DNA of 52,500 nucleotides from Dictyostelium firmibasis (Eukaryota > Evosea > Eumycetozoa > Dictyosteliales > Dictyosteliaceae): the NCBI GenBank assembly GCA_036169595.1, contig CM069765.1, positions 7,980,001 to 8,032,500 of the forward strand. Direction: 5' to 3'. The notes beneath the pieces were generated by a model. It did not search any database. It saw only the letters and a program-made list of their open reading frames with translations, and had not been told where the DNA came from. Made by a program: the position numbers and the translations under genes. Shown here in pieces: positions 2,515 through 11,409 of the stretch. Position 1 is the first letter of the stretch. Every line of letters starts with the position of its first letter.

Positions 2515-4974
2515 ATGTCAAGTAATACTACAACACCATCACCACCAACCACACAAACTCCAAGTATAGGACCAGTACCAATACCATATGAATCAGCAGG
2601 TTTTGGAAATTTGTTATTTTTCGCTATTTCAATAATACTTTGTGGACTTGTTGTTTTGGTTGGTATGAAACAATATATTTCATTAAAGAGAACACCAATA
2701 TATGCAACCTTTTTTTCTTTTATTGGTTGGTTTATGTGTTTTTCAATTGCATATTTAGTACCATTAGATATTATTGTTGTAAGTTATTTACCTATTTAAT
2801 AATCAAAAAAAAAAAAAAAATTTATATATATATATTAATATTATTTTATTATTCTCTAAAAAAAAAAAAAAAAAAAGACTGATCATTTACAATGTGTTGT
2901 TGAAAATAATGAAACTTTAACAGGAGAATGTGAAACACCAGTTACCTATTTACCATATGGTATGATAACTGAACAATGGAGATTTTTATATTTTGGATCA
3001 TTGGTATTGTGTTGGGTAATATTCCCAGTACTTCAATCATTTTCGACAGCAGGTGATTTTAGATTTTGGGAGAGAGTAAAGAGAGCAATTAAAGAGAATG
3101 TCATTTTATATACATTTATGGGAATTGGTGGATTAATTGGTGTTATTGTAATTCTTAGTGTCAAAGAGATGGATCCAAGTAGTTTTTTAAGTTTTGTAAT
3201 GTTATTGGCTAATGTTTATGGTGTAATATTGATCACTATAACTATGGGATATGGTTTAATTGATGTACCACGTAATTTACTTAGAAAGGGTAGTCATTAT
3301 GCAATCCTTCGTAATTATCGTGTCGAAGCTGTAGTATTGAAAACAGAATTAGAGGATGTAAAGAAACAATTGATTGAACATTTGAAATTAATTAAAACCA
3401 TCTCTGATAGAGCTGGTCAATATGATCCATTTAGAATCTATTTAGATGTTATCATCTCAAAATGTCCAACAGAATATGATCAATTAATTCAAGAATATCA
3501 TGCTGAACCATTACCACCAGGTATGGAAGCTGAAATGTTAAGTTATAAATATTTAGTTGGCGTTCATTCTACTTTATTGAATTTAGTTGATCGTAATCAT
3601 TCTGCTGAAGTGTTATATGAACGTTTATTGGGTAAAGCATTTGCAATTGAGGATATCATAGAAACTCGTGAACGTAGAAAGCAATCCAATATCGATCAAC
3701 AATCAATGGAGAAATCTATTCAATGGTCGTTCAAACCATCCTCAACTAAATCTAATGCTAAATTAGAATATCTATGGCACATGTATATTCATCCATGGTA
3801 TTTTATTATTGTCGGTTTGATATGTGTATGTTTGTCTGGTATTATTCTTTGGAGTGAAATTGTTTTAGCCGTTGTTAGTAGTCCAGAGTTTTCACCATTC
3901 TATCGTGCCATCATTAGAATGGAACCAGGAATAGGTTTACAAATATTTTGTTTCATACCAATGATCTATATGTGTGTTTGTTCTTACTCTACTCTATTCA
4001 AATTACGTATTTCAAATTACTATCGTCTTGTACCACAACAATCAAATACATTTTCTATCATGTTTAGTGCAAACTATCTCTGTCGTTTGGCAGCTCCTTT
4101 AGCATACAATTTCATTCAAATTTGTCACGTAAATCAAGGTAATAAAATCGTGTCTCCTTTCGATAAGATTATGGGTGATATGAATGCTTTCGGCGATAAT
4201 GCTTTAGGTAAAAGATTCACCTTATTTTTCCCAATCTTTATGATTGTGGTTTGTATTATCTCATTCTTTAATCTTCATAAAAGACTAGCTGGTTCTTGTT
4301 GTATAAGAAGTTTAAGAATAGTAACTGATACATCAGAAGGTGCTGTCGATCATGGTTTGAGAATTTTAAAACAAGAACGTGAGGAAAGATCTCTCAATGG
4401 TGGTGTTGCACCTATTAAAACAAGAATGAGCATCGTCAAAGAAATGTTCACCAAAAAGAAAGGTGCAGGTATATTAGTTACAGATATGGATGGTGCTAGC
4501 TCTTCAAAACCAATAGATCCTTCAAATAGATACAAAGCTACACCAACCAAAGCTTCAATCAATATTCCAAAATTATCAAGAACTTATACATCTGCTTCTG
4601 GTAACGTTTATTCATCAAATCAAGATGCTGAAAATAATGGTGATACTTCAATTAAACCAATCAATAGTTTCTTTTCAAGTATTTTGGGTGATAAAGGAAA
4701 TAATAATAATAGTAATAATACATCAAATAATAATAATAATAATAATAATGATAATAATAATAATAATAATAATAACAATAGTAAAAGTAATAATAGTTCA
4801 ATTTTAACTTCAAATTATAGTTCTAGTAATACAACTATTTCAAAAGGTAAAGATAAACAAGGTTTACTTTCTTATTTAGATAAAATGGATTTCTCTTTCA
4901 AAGATGAAGATGATCATACTTTTGATGATATAGAAATGGGTGCATATGGTACTGGTCGTAAAAATAAAAAGTAA
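2515..4974 (+). CDS. LMBR1 domain-containing protein 2-like multi-pass membrane protein
   Basis: Two exons: 2515-2778 and 2878-4974. The intron has a GTAAGT donor and an AAAAAG acceptor and keeps the frame, giving 786 residues. The ATG follows an A-rich leader and the next upstream codons hold no ATG. The product shows about nine hydrophobic segments: two near the N-terminus (about residues 30-52 and 62-88), three just after the intron, a charged cytosolic loop with coiled-coil character, then four more. This is the layout of LMBR1/LMBD2 proteins, which in animals are linked to GPCR/beta-arrestin signalling. The tail of about 200 residues carries Asn tracts, is Ser/Asn-rich, and ends in acidic and basic patches. 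It lies tail to tail with the lipase-STAND gene, 66 bases apart. From memory this is the Dictyostelium LMBD2 homolog B. Confidence 0.88.
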
Positions 4975-5040: not shown

Positions 5041-8000
5041 TTATTTTGTATTATTACTATTTTGATTATTATAATAGGAAATTAATATTAATAAAATTGA
5101 AGAAATAATTATTATTTTGTCGATTGTAAAGAAACTATTTGATTTCGAATTTTTATATTCAATAAACCAATTTGAATTATCTAAAAACTTAGATTTTTCT
5201 GGAGATAATGATTGGAATGATTTTAAAATTTCAAAATAATTTTGTAATTTGATTTTGTAATTTTTGTTTTTTGAATCTTCTAATTGATTTAAATTATAAT
5301 AAATTGAACCAATTAATTCAATTATTTGAAAAATTGAAATCAAAGAATCATTGTTGTTTGTGATTTCATTTTTTAATTGTTTGATATTATTAATGTTAAA
5401 TTTTGTTTGATTTAATTCAGTATGATTCTCTAAAATTTCTAATGATTTTTGAAAATTTGAAATACTTTCTTGTTTTAAATTTAATAATCTATAATTTTCA
5501 CCAATGTTTTTAAATGCTATTGCAACTTTCATAATGCTGTTTGAATTTGCGATTTTATCATTTTCTTCTTCTAATATTTTAATTAATTTGTTTGAATAAT
5601 TAATTGAAGTTTGATAATCCTTTAAAAGATAGGAAGAGGTTGATAATGATTCAAGAATTGGTACTAAATTTTCACAATTTGATTTTTGAATATTATATGA
5701 TTTCAAGAAACAATTGAATGACTCTTTATATTCTAACCTTTTTTTATAACAAACACCAAGATTGTTATAACTTTCACCAATATCTTTATGAGTTAAGTTG
5801 GTTCTATGAATTTTTAATCTAATATTTAATGATTCTTGAAGATTCTTTAAAGAATTTAATAAAACTGTTGGGTCAATTAAAATATTGGCATCCTTTAAGT
5901 AGGATAAACCGATTTTTTCAAAAGATGTTGCAATATCGGCATGATGAGAAGATTTGAATAATTCTTTGTAAAGTTGTATAGTTTTTTCAAATTTTTCAAT
6001 TGAAACTTTAAAATTAAATTCTAAAAATTCAATCAATGATAATTTGAAGTTACTCTTTACCAAAATTGGACAAATTTCATTTGAGTTACTTTCAATTAAA
6101 TTTAAAGCCATTAAAAATTCATTTTTTGCATTTTTAATATCATTTTTGGATAAATAATAATCACCTAAATTTAAATGAACAGATGATAAACCTTCTTTTG
6201 ATTTTTCAATCGATAATGATTTTTCATACCATTCTAATGATTCCTCTTTTAACCCCAATTTGAAATTACATAAACCAATTTGGTTATAAGTTTTTGAAAT
6301 CATTTCTAGTTTATCAGAGTTTTTTAATATCAAGTTAAAACTTGATAATGCATTTGAAAAATCTTCATTCTTTTGAAAAGAAAATCCAATTTGAAAAAAT
6401 GATTCTGATATATCATTTTTATATTCTTGATCTAAACAATTGAGCTGAGAAGATTCTTTTTTCATTTCTAAAGATTCATTTAAAAAATTTATAGATTCTT
6501 GATATGATGAAGTTAATCTATAACAAATACCTAAATTTTCAATCATTTTAATTGTACATAAATCTTTAAAGTTATCATATAAATAACGAAGGTGATTGAA
6601 ATAAATTCTCCAACCCTTTGGATGATGGCTTGATTTTAAATCTAAATTTGAAAATACTGTTTGGATACGATGAATAACTTTCTCTTTATCAGCCTCGGTA
6701 ATGATTTCATTTCTTATCAATTGTTGAATGTATTTATAGGTATTAACTTTTTCAGCAGTTTCAAAATCATTTATAACCGAAACATCTGACCAATATTTAA
6801 TGTATTGTTTAATATTCTCCATTGGTTTAATTGTTTCAGCTAGTGTATCTTGTTGTATTTTAGCTAAAACTTGATATGATATCGACTCTGGATCCAAGAA
6901 TGCCAAAGTAGACAATAATTGATTTGAATCTGGGTTGATTTTAATAAACTCTCTAATTAAATTAGATAATGTTTTACTAAAATCAATGGTTTCGGTTTCT
7001 GTTTCTTCTTTATTAAAATGGTTAACCAATATATTTAGTAAATGAATTGAAATTGGAGAATCAAAATTACAATTTGAATGAATTCCTCTACTCTTCAAAT
7101 ATCTATTTGCTTGTTCATTTGTTAATAGATTAATATTTAAAACAATTTCTTTGGTTGATTGTTTGGTTAAAGATAAAGTTCTTTCAATGAAAAAACTTTT
7201 TCTCTTTTCTACTTGACATGTTACGATTGCTCTTGTATTTAGTTTTGGCATATAGAATAAAAATGGTTCTACAACAGATAAATCTTGAACATTATCAAAA
7301 ATAAACATATAACAAGTATCCTGTGAATCCATAATTACCTTATAAAAATCAATTAAATTATTTGAAGATAATTGGAAATCATATGTAGTTCCACATTCTT
7401 TTGGTCCACTTTGTTCATTTTGATAGTTTTTTAATAGATGATTTGCAAAATCTTCATAAATCATCTCCTTTGAATTACCATGTATATAAAGTAATTTATG
7501 ATTTTTAAATGGCTGGTTATTTATTGGATTATTATAATTCTTTGAAATTGGGAATTGTTTTAATGCATATTCTAAAGCAATGGTTGATTTACCACTACCT
7601 TCTTCACCAGTTAAAATAACAATATTATTATTTTCTAAAATTTTTTCAATTTTTTCTAAATAATTATCAGGGTCAAAAAATCCTTCATTATTGGTGTGAT
7701 TAACACGAATTTTATATTCTTTTGGTTTATAATCTTGATCATTGGATGTTAATACCTTTATAATTTCTTTTGGATTTAAATTTACCACTCTTGAAACTCT
7801 TTGCTTTAATTGTTCATATGTAATAGTTTGATTTTTTATTGTAATTTGACAAAGTGATTTTTGATTAGAAAAGTCTTGAATTTCAAATAGAGATTTTAAT
7901 TCTTTTAATTGTGTTGAGATGAAATAATCACTAAATTCATAAAAATAATTTTTAATTGATAGTTGATGAATAATTTCATCAATTCTGAATCTATCAAGTG

Positions 8001-9228
8001 CAAGAATTCCACCGTATGGATTAACAACTTCAACATCATAATGAACCTCATCTTCATATGGATTGTTTGGTTTTTCTAATGCACCATTATCATTTTTTTC
8101 AAAGTAAGAAAAATAGATTGACAAATTTGAGATTTTAATTAATGGCCATTTCTTTACAATTTTGTACTCCCTTGGTTTACCAGTTTCAAAATCAAAAGTA
8201 TCCAAAATGCTACCTAATACATGGAACTTTGCACTAATGATGAAATCTAATTTCATAGTATCTATTTGTTCAACACCAGCTGGATAAATTCTATATGTTG
8301 TATCATTATCAAATATATGATTGTTCATAGAGTTTACAATGTTTGGTTCGGATAGGTAACTAACAATATTCATACAATTGTATGGGATAACTGGTTCTTT
8401 GTAATTATCTATTACTTTGAATTGGTCTAAAGCACCTGGTGAATCAAATGTTACAGTTTTTACATGTTTAAAATTATGATTGTAAAAACAATCATAGTGT
8501 GCCAACTCTGATAACCATGCACCCAAACTATGACCAACAATGGTGAGATTGTAATGTTTAGATTTACATATTTCTACTGCTTCCTTTACTACTTTAAATA
8601 CCATCCTTTGTTGAAATGAATTTCTATCCTTTAAGGTGATACCAACAACATCCTCAAACATAGTATAGGCAGCTTCTCTAAGATTGGTTGGAACAGTACC
8701 ACGGAAAGCCATGATTAAATGGTGCATCTCTTTGTTTTCATAAATAGCGAATTGAAAACCATCTTCATTTAAAAATCGAATGATTTCCAACTTTGATAAA
8801 TATTCATTGATTGACTCTAATTGTGAAGCTGTTGCTCGAGGAATATTAATTGATGGTATGTCTCTAAAATCTACAGATTTTTTATTTTGGAATACACTTG
8901 ATGCACAATAAATGTGACCAGCAATTACACCACACATATAATCTGAAGGATGGTAATTAAAAATTTGATTATTCTTTCTTAATCTTTTTATTACTTTACA
9001 AAAAGTATAGTCAAATCTATCTTGTTCCTCATTGAATAAAATACTACCAATTTTTATATTTCTTTTTAAGTGTATTAATAATCTTTCAAGTTCTTCTTTA
9101 CTTAATACAGACTTTGTTAGATCAACATAACCTTCTGGCCATACAATTTGAAATGATAGTGATGATATTGATTCAGATAATTTAATTGGTGTTAAATAAA
9201 TTGGTGTTGTATCAGATGAATCAACCAT
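5041..9228 (-). CDS. Lipase (class 3) - STAND/NB-ARC ATPase - TPR protein with C-terminal membrane anchor
   Basis: A single uninterrupted frame of 1395 residues; the ATG follows an 18-base A run on the coding strand. Residues 100-340 look like a class 3 lipase: AFRGT at about 174, and the nucleophile elbow VGHSLGAWLS with Ser234. The Asp of the triad is not obvious, since the segment YLSEPNIVNS sits where it is expected. Residues 520-870 form an NB-ARC/STAND ATPase: a P-loop GEEGSGKST at 541-549, a Walker B-like MFIFDNVQDL near 641, a sensor-like RAIVTCQ near 666, and a winged-helix-like stretch near 820-840. About nine TPR-like helical repeats fill residues 895-1270. Residues 1366-1387 are a hydrophobic helix followed by a short polar tail, as in tail-anchored proteins. 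Function is inferred: a signal-gated lipase of NLR type, with TPRs as sensor. Lipid substrate and trigger are unknown. Confidence 0.85.
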   Translation of the reverse strand: MVDSSDTTPIYLTPIKLSESISSLSFQIVWPEGYVDLTKSVLSKEELERLLIHLKRNIKIGSILFNEEQDRFDYTFCKVIKRLRKNNQIFNYHPSDYMCGVIAGHIYCASSVFQNKKSVDFRDIPSINIPRATASQLESINEYLSKLEIIRFLNEDGFQFAIYENKEMHHLIMAFRGTVPTNLREAAYTMFEDVVGITLKDRNSFQQRMVFKVVKEAVEICKSKHYNLTIVGHSLGAWLSELAHYDCFYNHNFKHVKTVTFDSPGALDQFKVIDNYKEPVIPYNCMNIVSYLSEPNIVNSMNNHIFDNDTTYRIYPAGVEQIDTMKLDFIISAKFHVLGSILDTFDFETGKPREYKIVKKWPLIKISNLSIYFSYFEKNDNGALEKPNNPYEDEVHYDVEVVNPYGGILALDRFRIDEIIHQLSIKNYFYEFSDYFISTQLKELKSLFEIQDFSNQKSLCQITIKNQTITYEQLKQRVSRVVNLNPKEIIKVLTSNDQDYKPKEYKIRVNHTNNEGFFDPDNYLEKIEKILENNNIVILTGEEGSGKSTIALEYALKQFPISKNYNNPINNQPFKNHKLLYIHGNSKEMIYEDFANHLLKNYQNEQSGPKECGTTYDFQLSSNNLIDFYKVIMDSQDTCYMFIFDNVQDLSVVEPFLFYMPKLNTRAIVTCQVEKRKSFFIERTLSLTKQSTKEIVLNINLLTNEQANRYLKSRGIHSNCNFDSPISIHLLNILVNHFNKEETETETIDFSKTLSNLIREFIKINPDSNQLLSTLAFLDPESISYQVLAKIQQDTLAETIKPMENIKQYIKYWSDVSVINDFETAEKVNTYKYIQQLIRNEIITEADKEKVIHRIQTVFSNLDLKSSHHPKGWRIYFNHLRYLYDNFKDLCTIKMIENLGICYRLTSSYQESINFLNESLEMKKESSQLNCLDQEYKNDISESFFQIGFSFQKNEDFSNALSSFNLILKNSDKLEMISKTYNQIGLCNFKLGLKEESLEWYEKSLSIEKSKEGLSSVHLNLGDYYLSKNDIKNAKNEFLMALNLIESNSNEICPILVKSNFKLSLIEFLEFNFKVSIEKFEKTIQLYKELFKSSHHADIATSFEKIGLSYLKDANILIDPTVLLNSLKNLQESLNIRLKIHRTNLTHKDIGESYNNLGVCYKKRLEYKESFNCFLKSYNIQKSNCENLVPILESLSTSSYLLKDYQTSINYSNKLIKILEEENDKIANSNSIMKVAIAFKNIGENYRLLNLKQESISNFQKSLEILENHTELNQTKFNINNIKQLKNEITNNNDSLISIFQIIELIGSIYYNLNQLEDSKNKNYKIKLQNYFEILKSFQSLSPEKSKFLDNSNWFIEYKNSKSNSFFTIDKIIIISSILLILISYYNNQNSNNTK

Positions 9229-10306: not shown

Positions 10307-10380
10307 ATGGATTCTAATTTTTTTAATTTTAAAAAAATTTGGTATATAACTGGTGAGTATATTTTTTTTTTTTTAGATTA

Positions 10381-10415
<35 letters not shown>

Positions 10416-11409
10416 TAATTATTAATAATAAAAAAATTAATAAAGGAGTAAGTACTGGTGTTGGACTATGTTTATGTCAAGAACTATTAAAAAATGGAGA
10501 TAAAGTTGTTGGAACATCTAGAGGGACTATTTTCTCTCCGACAATATCGAACCATCCAAACTTTTTAGGAATACAAGTTGATATTACAAATTCCCAATCT
10601 GTTCAAAATTCAATATATAAAACAATAGAACATTTTGGTGGTTTAACTCATGTAATAAATAATGCCGGTTATGGGAAAATTGGTACAATAGAAGAAGTTT
10701 CTGATGAAGAATCTAGAAAACTTATGGATGTATGTTATTAATAAATATTAATATATATATATAAATTATTAACTCTGAAATTTTTTTTTTAAAACACTTT
10801 TAGGTACTATATTTCGGACCATTAAATATTTTAAGATCTGTTTTACCAATTTTTAGAAATCAAAAAAATGGTTATATTTTTAATGTATGTTCAATTGCTG
10901 GTTTTAAACCACCTTCAAGGTTAGGGAATTATTCTTCATGTAAAGCTGCTCTTTCTGCTGTAACTGAAGGTTTGTTGATTTTTATGACTTTACTTTTTTA
11001 AAAAATTTTATTTTCAAAATTCTAATATTTTTTTATTTTTTATTAAAAAATCATAGCACTTGCAATCGATGTAAAACCATTTAATATTAAAGTATCTTCA
11101 ATTGTTTTAGGGTTTATTGTAACTGATTTTCATGTAAATAATAGTTTTAGTCAAAATCAATTACCAGAATATGAATCATCAAAATATTGGACAGATTTAT
11201 GTGCAGAGGTATCCAATAATTTATTGCCTGGTGACCCAAGAAAGGTAGCCCTAAAAATAATTGAAAATGGTGATAAAGTAACATTACCATTCAATATTTT
11301 CATTGGTCCAATTGATACATTTACAATGGCTGACTCAAAAATTTCAGAGTTAAACCAACAAATCGAATCTCAAAGAAATGTATATTCAAATGTGGTATTA
11401 GAAAAATAA
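10307..11409 (+). CDS. Short-chain dehydrogenase/reductase, four exons
   Basis: Exons placed at 10307-10352, 10446-10729, 10804-10969 and 11057-11409, giving 282 residues. The donors are GTGAGT, GTATGT and GTTTGT, and each acceptor is AG. Joining exon 1 to exon 2 at 10446 restores the Rossmann motif TGVSTGVG exactly in register with the neighbouring paralogue. NNAG lies in exon 2. VCS and the YSSCK version of the YxxxK active site lie in exon 3. The product is a classical-type SDR using NAD(P)H; the substrate is unknown. It is a tandem duplicate of the next gene, about 570 bases downstream on the same strand, but has introns that the neighbour lacks. The active-site Ser region reads NVCS, where the paralogue has NVSS. 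The first intron happens to contain no stop in frame, so a naive translation would read through it into a Phe-rich stretch. Confidence 0.88.

What the first reader, a model, noticed from the sequence alone, without database searches (positions are those of the whole stretch)
5041..9228. Lipase - STAND ATPase - TPR - membrane anchor: an NLR-like protein in an amoeba
One 1395-residue frame joins a class 3 lipase with an intact GHSLG elbow, an NB-ARC-like ATPase with an intact P-loop, about nine TPR repeats and a C-terminal hydrophobic helix. Known STAND proteins of fungi, plants and bacteria use this effector - switch - sensor order in defence and self/nonself recognition. Some fungal ones use lipase-like effectors. 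The inference is a membrane-bound, ligand-gated lipase, perhaps acting against engulfed bacteria or in kin recognition. The tail anchor would place the enzyme on a chosen organelle.
Basis: partly seen in the sequence, partly recalled or inferred. Interest (0 to 1): 0.8.

Follow-up and report, generated by a model that had tools for sequence, protein, structure and literature searches.

The report
Amoeba lipase-NLR shared with bacterial symbionts
A social amoeba carries one membrane-anchored, immune-receptor-like enzyme that belongs to the same family as proteins of bacteria living inside other cells, which suggests that a receptor and its weapon were passed between symbionts and hosts as one unit.

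Summary
Confirmed: window 5041-9228 (minus) encodes an intact 1395-aa protein of Dictyostelium firmibasis with a class 3 lipase fold (94-348), an Apaf-1-like NB-ARC STAND switch (about 508-870), about ten TPR-like helix pairs and a C-terminal hydrophobic helix. It is the ortholog of D. discoideum DDB_G0281671 (79%); D. dimigraforme and D. purpureum have orthologs.

A profile without dictyostelids finds the amoeba lipase at E 2e-60 and its STAND part at 9e-13; one from four named bacterial loci finds the lipase (2e-49) but not the STAND part. A bacterial lipase query finds no other gene in the amoeba genome. So a ready-made lipase-NB-ARC-TPR protein was probably transferred between domains. Direction is not proven; bacteria to amoeba is favoured.

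All four amoeba proteins add a C-terminal anchor (1 of 115 other homologs has a like segment) and change two switch residues (sensor-1 Arg to Gln, MHD-type His to Tyr), keeping Walker A/B and the Ser-Asp-His set.

Best guess: a tail-anchored, TPR-sensed membrane lipase domesticated from a symbiont. Activity, ligand and organelle are untested. Kin recognition is disfavoured.

The parts
5041..9228 (-). whole gene, 1395 aa, single open frame; ortholog of D. discoideum DDB_G0281671
8185..8949 (-). class 3 lipase (alpha/beta hydrolase), residues 94-348; proposed triad S234, D262, H336
8950..9228 (-). N-terminal module, residues 1-93; residues 31-93 carry a D-L-x-x-x-x-L...N-x-x-I-G-x-I motif shared with other homologs (extra copies in P0009)
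7708..8184 (-). linker region, residues 349-507
   Evidence: 80-82% identical to two congeners; not found by linker profiles without dictyostelids
6619..7707 (-). NB-ARC STAND module with winged helix (DUF7779 at 761-842), residues 508-870; Walker A 541-549, Walker B 642-646, Q672 at the sensor-1 place, Y831 at the MHD-type His place
5206..6552 (-). TPR superhelix, 21 helices, residues 893-1341
5044..5169 (-). C-terminal hydrophobic helix / proposed tail anchor, residues 1354-1395 (hydrophobic windows start at 1365-1372)

Best explanation
A tail-anchored STAND lipase. The protein faces the cytosol, held to an organelle by its last helix. The TPR superhelix binds a ligand or partner; the NB-ARC module, an Apaf-1-like nucleotide-binding hub, changes shape or oligomerises; this frees or clusters the N-terminal class 3 lipase, which then hydrolyses lipids of the membrane it sits on. 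The gene is most likely a captured and domesticated copy of a lipase-NB-ARC-TPR protein of an intracellular bacterium, taken in before D. discoideum, D. firmibasis, D. dimigraforme and D. purpureum separated, and altered since by a new tail anchor and changed switch residues. Shown: architecture, predicted folds, orthology, homology of the lipase with the bacterial family (and of the STAND part by the wider profile), residue and anchor differences. Inferred: direction of transfer, membrane placement, enzymatic activity, gating, biological role.
Against: No activity, localisation or expression data. The STAND profile built from the four named bacterial loci alone did not find P0001, and neither linker profile did, so outside the lipase the homology is fainter. 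Sensor-1 Arg (49 of 56 homologs) is Gln and the MHD-type His (52 of 56) is Tyr in 4 of 4 dictyostelids, so gating may be lost or different. The outgroup tree leaves the dictyostelids on an unresolved base, and a tree with them basal is not rejected (p-AU 0.374), so direction is open.
Confidence: 0.48

Rival explanations
1. A host-made NLR: an amoeba (or other eukaryote) fused lipase, NB-ARC and TPR, and intracellular bacteria acquired the gene from hosts.
For: The tree does not fix the direction (p-AU 0.374 for dictyostelids basal); symbionts do take up host genes (recalled); a partial Reticulomyxa filosa protein groups weakly with the dictyostelids, support 77/72.
Against: The sequence diversity seen lies in bacteria; the named ones span at least two phyla (phyla recalled). 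The sister lipases used as outgroup, five of ten with the same TFDSP/IFDSP motif, come from prokaryote genomes too. The amoeba's other Lipase_3 genes are far away: the four of fourteen that I tested score 8-29 bits with the non-dictyostelid profile against 210 bits for this gene.
Confidence: 0.25
2. A constitutive housekeeping lipase: the STAND part is now a scaffold, not a switch, and the protein does ordinary lipid turnover on an organelle such as the ER or lipid droplets.
For: Loss of the sensor-1 Arg and the MHD-type His in 4 of 4 dictyostelids; single copy and no expansion; the lipase is the most conserved part, 86-88%; C-terminal hydrophobic helix.
Against: Walker A and B are intact in 4 of 4 and the NBD is 79-81% conserved between congeners, as if nucleotide binding still matters; a TPR superhelix of about 450 residues is retained.
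Confidence: 0.3
3. A self/nonself (kin) recognition or cell-death receptor of the fungal PLP-1 type.
For: Same order of parts as N. crassa PLP-1, patatin - NB-ARC - TPR, which triggers cell death on meeting an incompatible SEC-9 variant (passages of PMC12881547).
Against: Single copy and 75-76% identity of the TPR part between species, so no paralog expansion or hypervariable sensor in the data seen; polymorphism within a species was not examined. Polymorphic TgrB1/TgrC1 already serve recognition in D. discoideum (start of abstract in a listing, PMC12324515).
Confidence: 0.08
4. Contamination: the gene is a bacterial sequence mis-assembled into the amoeba genome.
For: Similarity to bacterial proteins.
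Against: It lies inside a 9.4-Mb contig beside an LMBR1 gene, has a low GC3 like other frames of the window, and orthologs exist in three other dictyostelids; the assembly paper discarded contigs of bacterial origin (passage of PMC11193728).
Confidence: 0.01

Closest known systems
Lipase - NB-ARC - TPR proteins of intracellular bacteria (Rickettsia, Ca. Megaira, Ca. Amoebophilus, Holosporaceae), named in the sources seen as TPR repeat, NB-ARC, lipase family or hypothetical proteins
   Same: same lipase subtype (FDSPG, YLSxPNxVN...H, FDxxTGKP), same order of parts, homologous lipase, and STAND by the wider profile
   Different: no C-terminal hydrophobic segment in 114 of 115, while 29 of 115 have an N-terminal one; mostly Arg at sensor 1 and His at the MHD place
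DDB_G0281671 of D. discoideum (hypothetical protein at NCBI, 'Fungal lipase-type' in UniRef)
   Same: ortholog, 79% identical over 98%
   Different: nothing essential; its STAND part is not named in the annotation seen
PLP-1 of Neurospora crassa (patatin - NB-ARC - TPR NLR; passage of PMC12881547)
   Same: lipid-cleaving effector, NB-ARC, TPR in the same order
   Different: patatin, not class 3 lipase; no tail anchor mentioned in the passage; sequence relation not tested
Apaf-1 (3sfz, 1z6t) and plant NRC/ZAR1 NB-ARC modules
   Different: CARD or CC effector, WD40 or LRR sensor; canonical switch residues (recalled)
STAND protein with TPR sensor, PDB 6mfv
   Same: STAND plus TPR, best Foldseek hit of residues 440-1395
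   Different: no lipase, archaeal origin (both recalled)
Thermomyces / Rhizomucor lipases
   Different: secreted stand-alone enzymes whose catalytic Asp follows strand 7 (recalled); there this family has Asn (N296), and its conserved Asp follows strand 6
NB-ARC-TPR proteins discussed as pattern receptors in Acanthamoeba and Ectocarpus (passage of PMC4053784)
   Same: NB-ARC plus TPR in an amoebozoan
   Different: no lipase mentioned; relation not tested

Membership tests
STAND / NB-ARC (AP-ATPase) | Walker A and Walker B | tested here: met
   GEEGSGKS and F-I/V-F-D-N in 4 of 4 dictyostelids
STAND / NB-ARC (AP-ATPase) | NB-ARC fold with winged helix | tested here: met
STAND / NB-ARC (AP-ATPase) | PF00931 profile hit | tested here: not met
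   0 matches in the genome at E <= 1e-3; homologs P0016, P0034, P0038, P0069, P0025 and P0007 pass its cut-off, so this lowers the sequence claim, not the fold claim
STAND / NB-ARC (AP-ATPase) | sensor-1 Arg and MHD-type His (recalled as switch residues) | tested here: not met
   Gln and Tyr in 4 of 4 dictyostelids; Arg in 49 of 56 and His in 52 of 56 other homologs
NLR (immune receptor) | effector - NOD - repeat sensor order | tested here: met
NLR (immune receptor) | ligand-triggered oligomerisation and immune output | not testable with these tools
   needs biochemistry and genetics
Class 3 lipase (PF01764) | profile over cut-off and lipase fold | tested here: met
Class 3 lipase (PF01764) | GxSxG serine, Asp, His | tested here: inconclusive
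   S234, D262, H336 conserved; geometry not measured, and the acid follows strand 6 instead of strand 7
Lipase - NB-ARC - TPR family of intracellular bacteria | lipase homology by a profile without dictyostelids | tested here: met
   E 2.4e-60 with ten rows, 2.2e-49 with the four named bacterial loci, database size set to 1e6
Lipase - NB-ARC - TPR family of intracellular bacteria | STAND and linker homology by a profile without dictyostelids | tested here: inconclusive
   STAND found at 8.9e-13 by the ten-row profile but not by the four-locus profile; the linker by neither
Tail-anchored membrane protein | single C-terminal hydrophobic helix with short tail, no N-terminal hydrophobic segment | tested here: met
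   hydropathy in 4 of 4, helix 1353-1390; membrane insertion itself untested

The most novel reading that the evidence does not exclude
Dictyostelids captured a complete receptor-plus-effector gene, a lipase NLR, from an intracellular bacterium, fixed it to one of their own membranes with a new tail anchor, retuned its nucleotide switch, and now use it as cell-intrinsic immunity, for example to sense or lyse compartments occupied by bacteria of the very kinds that carry the gene. Amoebophilus symbionts do associate with D. discoideum, though without obvious fitness effects (passage of PMC9601139).
Probability: 0.18. Interest if true: 0.87.

Novelty: new variant of a known kind. Interest (0 to 1): 0.62.

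Why it matters
NLR-like receptors are usually explained by domain shuffling inside a lineage. Here the complete receptor-effector unit is shared between obligate intracellular bacteria and an amoeba, so an NLR may itself have been the transferred item. D. discoideum has an ortholog, is genetically tractable and is found with Amoebophilus symbionts (passage of PMC9601139), so the questions can be tested directly. The bacterial family, 248 proteins at E <= 1e-10 in one search, is named in the sources seen mostly by its TPR, NB-ARC or lipase part or not at all, so describing it as one family would improve the annotation of many symbiont genomes.

Tried and rejected
Kin recognition: disfavoured (see rivals). 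Contamination: rejected. Viral vector: a scan of viral contigs with A3 gave 73 pattern matches and no confirmed relative; plasmids, tblastn with the L010 lipase: no match at 1e-10. PADLOC: one weak hit, mad8 at 0.011. Rooted tree to settle direction: unresolved; in the first tree the dictyostelids met a long branch, P0109, a place that I do not trust. Paralogs in the genome: none at E <= 1e-3. Selection by dN/dS: not done, since coding DNA of the orthologs was not at hand. Other dictyostelids (Polysphondylium, Cavenderia and others): not tested; the protein search samples words, and P0001-P0003 are missing from the 120 listed rows although they stood in the query alignment, so absence from lists means nothing. 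Profiles of the linker did not find P0001, nor did the STAND profile from four named loci. The GLPL-type Pro could not be placed surely: the aligned column has Ile in the dictyostelids, but a Pro stands three residues earlier.

Rows left out: of 248 proteins found only 120 were listed and looked at. The first tree used 125 of 129 rows (P0012, P0090, P0108 and P0127 dropped). The outgroup tree used 55 of 129 plus 10 of 17 candidate outgroup loci. The residue counts used 56 of the 123 non-dictyostelid proteins then held. The hydropathy count used the 115 non-dictyostelid rows of 900 aa or more, L010 among them; many may be cut by contig ends, so missing C-termini are possible.

Papers: ten searches. 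DDB_G0281671: 0 papers. Amoebophilus + Rickettsia + lipase + NB-ARC: 0 papers. In the other listings no title or abstract start named this protein or the bacterial family; the full texts were not read. Of five papers I saw passages found by term: PMC12881547, PMC4053784, PMC11193728, PMC9601139, PMC10732058. Subscription papers are mostly not held.

Full report
WHAT IS THERE. The window lies in a 9.41-Mb contig of a 31.46-Mb, 12-contig genome. This fits Dictyostelium firmibasis TNS-C-14, whose assembly is 31.5 Mb in 12 contigs with a largest contig of 9.4 Mb (passages of PMC11193728). The frame 5041..9228 (minus) is open over 1395 codons. Orthologs: P0002, D. discoideum DDB_G0281671, 79%; P0003, D. 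dimigraforme, 78%; P0004, D. purpureum, 47%, fused in its gene model to other domains. A search of the genome with the whole protein finds this gene alone at E <= 1e-3.

CATALYTIC RESIDUES. In the alignment A7 (60 rows, 4 dictyostelid and 56 other) S234 is Ser in 56 of 56 others, D262 Asp in 54 of 56, H336 His in 51 of 56, and each in 4 of 4 dictyostelids. D262 directly follows strand 6 (256-261), while after strand 7 (288-292) the family has Asn, N296, in 54 of 56. From recall, classical class 3 lipases have the acid after strand 7. So I propose an acid moved to strand 6; the distances were not measured. A pattern count over all 129 sequences held (4 dictyostelid, 123 others, 2 loci), 117 of which matched the pattern, gave Asp 110, Glu 5, Asn 1, Gln 1 at this place.

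THE BACTERIAL FAMILY. A profile of the four dictyostelid proteins hit P0005-P0012; by Pfam and alignment P0005, P0006, P0007 and P0010 have lipase, STAND and TPR in the same order. A scan of prokaryote genomes returned 7 loci: L010 (a Proteobacteria MAG), L011 (Rickettsia endosymbiont of Omalisus fontisbellaquei), L012 and L013 (Rickettsia endosymbiont of Pseudomimeciton antennatum), and three others: two cyanobacterial matches in the TPR part only (L014, L015) and a match in the lipase part only of Aneurinibacillus (L016). A search with a mixed profile gave 248 proteins at E <= 1e-10, 120 listed. 17 of the 120 bear an organism's name: six Rickettsia endosymbionts, R. tillamookensis, two R. 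bellii, two Ca. Megaira, three Ca. Amoebophilus (A. asiaticus Aasi_0340 among them), one Holosporaceae, one Verrucomicrobia MAG and one partial protein of the foraminifer Reticulomyxa filosa. That the first fifteen live inside cells is partly in their titles and otherwise recalled.

INDEPENDENCE OF THE HOMOLOGY. Profiles from the ten non-dictyostelid rows of A4 (four named bacterial loci, six proteins of unnamed source) find P0001 with the lipase part at 2.4e-60 and with the STAND part at 8.9e-13 (database size set to 1e6); the linker part gave no hit to P0001. Profiles from the four named bacterial loci alone find the P0001 lipase at 2.2e-49, but neither its STAND part nor its linker. Reverse test: the L010 lipase finds one place in the D. 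firmibasis genome, this gene (4.6e-35; the tool's first look passed one candidate), although 15 places, this gene among them, match Lipase_3. Four of the other fourteen Lipase_3 places score 8-29 bits with the ten-row lipase profile against 210 for this gene.

HOW WIDE. In the order of G002 (the Omalisus Rickettsia), 60 of 343 genomes match the lipase alignment A5 at E <= 1e-10. By my count from that table 15 are at E <= 1e-60, and three of these (G001-G003) supplied rows of the alignment; some matches hold stop codons. Many weaker matches lie in frames of roughly 270-580 aa, a sister family or families. A5 models the lipase only, so these counts say nothing on the STAND and TPR parts. In a sample of the class of G001 only G001 itself matched, 1 of 385. 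Two rickettsial copies lie near mobile-element genes: L011 has three TraD-like pieces upstream, L012 a phage-type integrase nearby. In Orientia, conjugative RAGE elements carry TPR proteins regarded as putative secreted effectors (passages of PMC10732058).

DIRECTION. In a careful tree of 65 lipase rows rooted on ten sister lipases, the dictyostelids form one clade (100/100) on a long branch (1.57) at an unresolved base. Holding all other ingroup rows together is not rejected (p-AU 0.374), and a dictyostelid + Reticulomyxa group is weak (77/72). So the tree does not give the direction. I favour bacteria to amoeba because the diversity and the sister lipases seen are bacterial; this is inference. 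Opportunity exists: D. discoideum associates with Amoebophilus symbionts, with no obvious fitness effects (Haselkorn et al. 2021 as cited in a passage of PMC9601139; the paper itself was not held).

WHAT THE AMOEBA CHANGED. First, a C-terminal hydrophobic segment is present in 4 of 4 dictyostelids and in 1 of 115 other homologs of 900 aa or more; 29 of 115 have an N-terminal hydrophobic segment, the dictyostelids none. Truncated metagenome proteins may hide some C-termini. Second, the residue at the sensor-1 place (TTR motif) is Arg in 49 of 56 others and Gln in 4 of 4 dictyostelids, and the MHD-type His is His in 52 of 56 and Tyr in 4 of 4; Walker A and B are kept. From recall, these two residues sense the nucleotide and hold the resting state in Apaf-1 and plant NLRs. 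So the switch is either retuned or partly disabled, and this change was probably fixed in the common ancestor of the four. Third, the gene has become host-like: GC3 15%, against 16-22% in six other frames of the window.

HOW IT MAY WORK. Best reading: a cytosol-facing, tail-anchored lipase whose access to its membrane is governed by an Apaf-1-like hub and a TPR sensor. Steps shown: the parts, their predicted folds, the conserved residues. Steps inferred: anchoring, sensing, gating, lipolysis, role. The lipase is the best conserved part between D. firmibasis and two congeners (86-88%) and the TPR part is at 75-76%, so the output is kept and the sensor is not hypervariable. That speaks against kin recognition and for a conserved ligand or a housekeeping task.

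AGAINST WHAT IS KNOWN. Fungal PLP-1 (patatin - NB-ARC - TPR) is the nearest functional analogue and triggers cell death on meeting an incompatible SEC-9 (passage of PMC12881547). NB-ARC-TPR proteins were proposed as pattern receptors in Ectocarpus, and Acanthamoeba has one (passage of PMC4053784). The searches named under Tried and rejected showed no paper, by title or abstract start, on this dictyostelid protein or on the bacterial lipase-NB-ARC-TPR family. It works like an NLR in architecture; as a member, it meets the fold and Walker motifs of NB-ARC, fails the PF00931 profile and lacks two canonical switch residues.

VERDICT. A real, conserved gene.

Noticed in passing
G000 C1:1096642-1097034 (L007), C1:1172469-1172798 (L008): Two other NLR-like frames in the same genome: DUF4062 - NACHT/NPHP3_N - APAF1_C - WD40.
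   Followed up: partly
G000 C3:249357-249626 (L009): A third one: DUF4062 - NACHT/AAA - nephrocystin-3-like TPR.
   Followed up: partly
L023, L027, L028, L034, L036: Lipases in frames of 295-397 aa from genomes of the same order as the Omalisus Rickettsia share the TFDSP/IFDSP motif; a sister family that may be the root of the effector.
   Followed up: partly
P0091: A partial Reticulomyxa filosa protein (contig 4317 bases) of the same family: contamination by a symbiont, or a second transfer to a eukaryote.
   Followed up: partly
P0009 residues 271-560: Four extra copies of the N-terminal module (D-L...L-x-x-x-Q-L...I-x-W) stand before the lipase, so it is a repeat unit of its own.
   Followed up: no
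L011 86-1576: TraD coupling protein in three pieces upstream of a Rickettsia lipase-NB-ARC-TPR gene, which suggests a mobile-element setting.
   Followed up: partly
P0004: The D. purpureum gene model joins this protein to 2OG-Fe(II) oxygenase, F-box and actin-like domains, probably a gene-model fusion.
   Followed up: no
window 2962-4974 (+): Neighbour, tail to tail: an LMBR1-domain membrane protein with an asparagine-rich tail.
   Followed up: no
window 10307-10741 (+): Short frame whose sequence looks like the start of a short-chain dehydrogenase, probably the first exon of an interrupted gene; judged by eye only.
   Followed up: no
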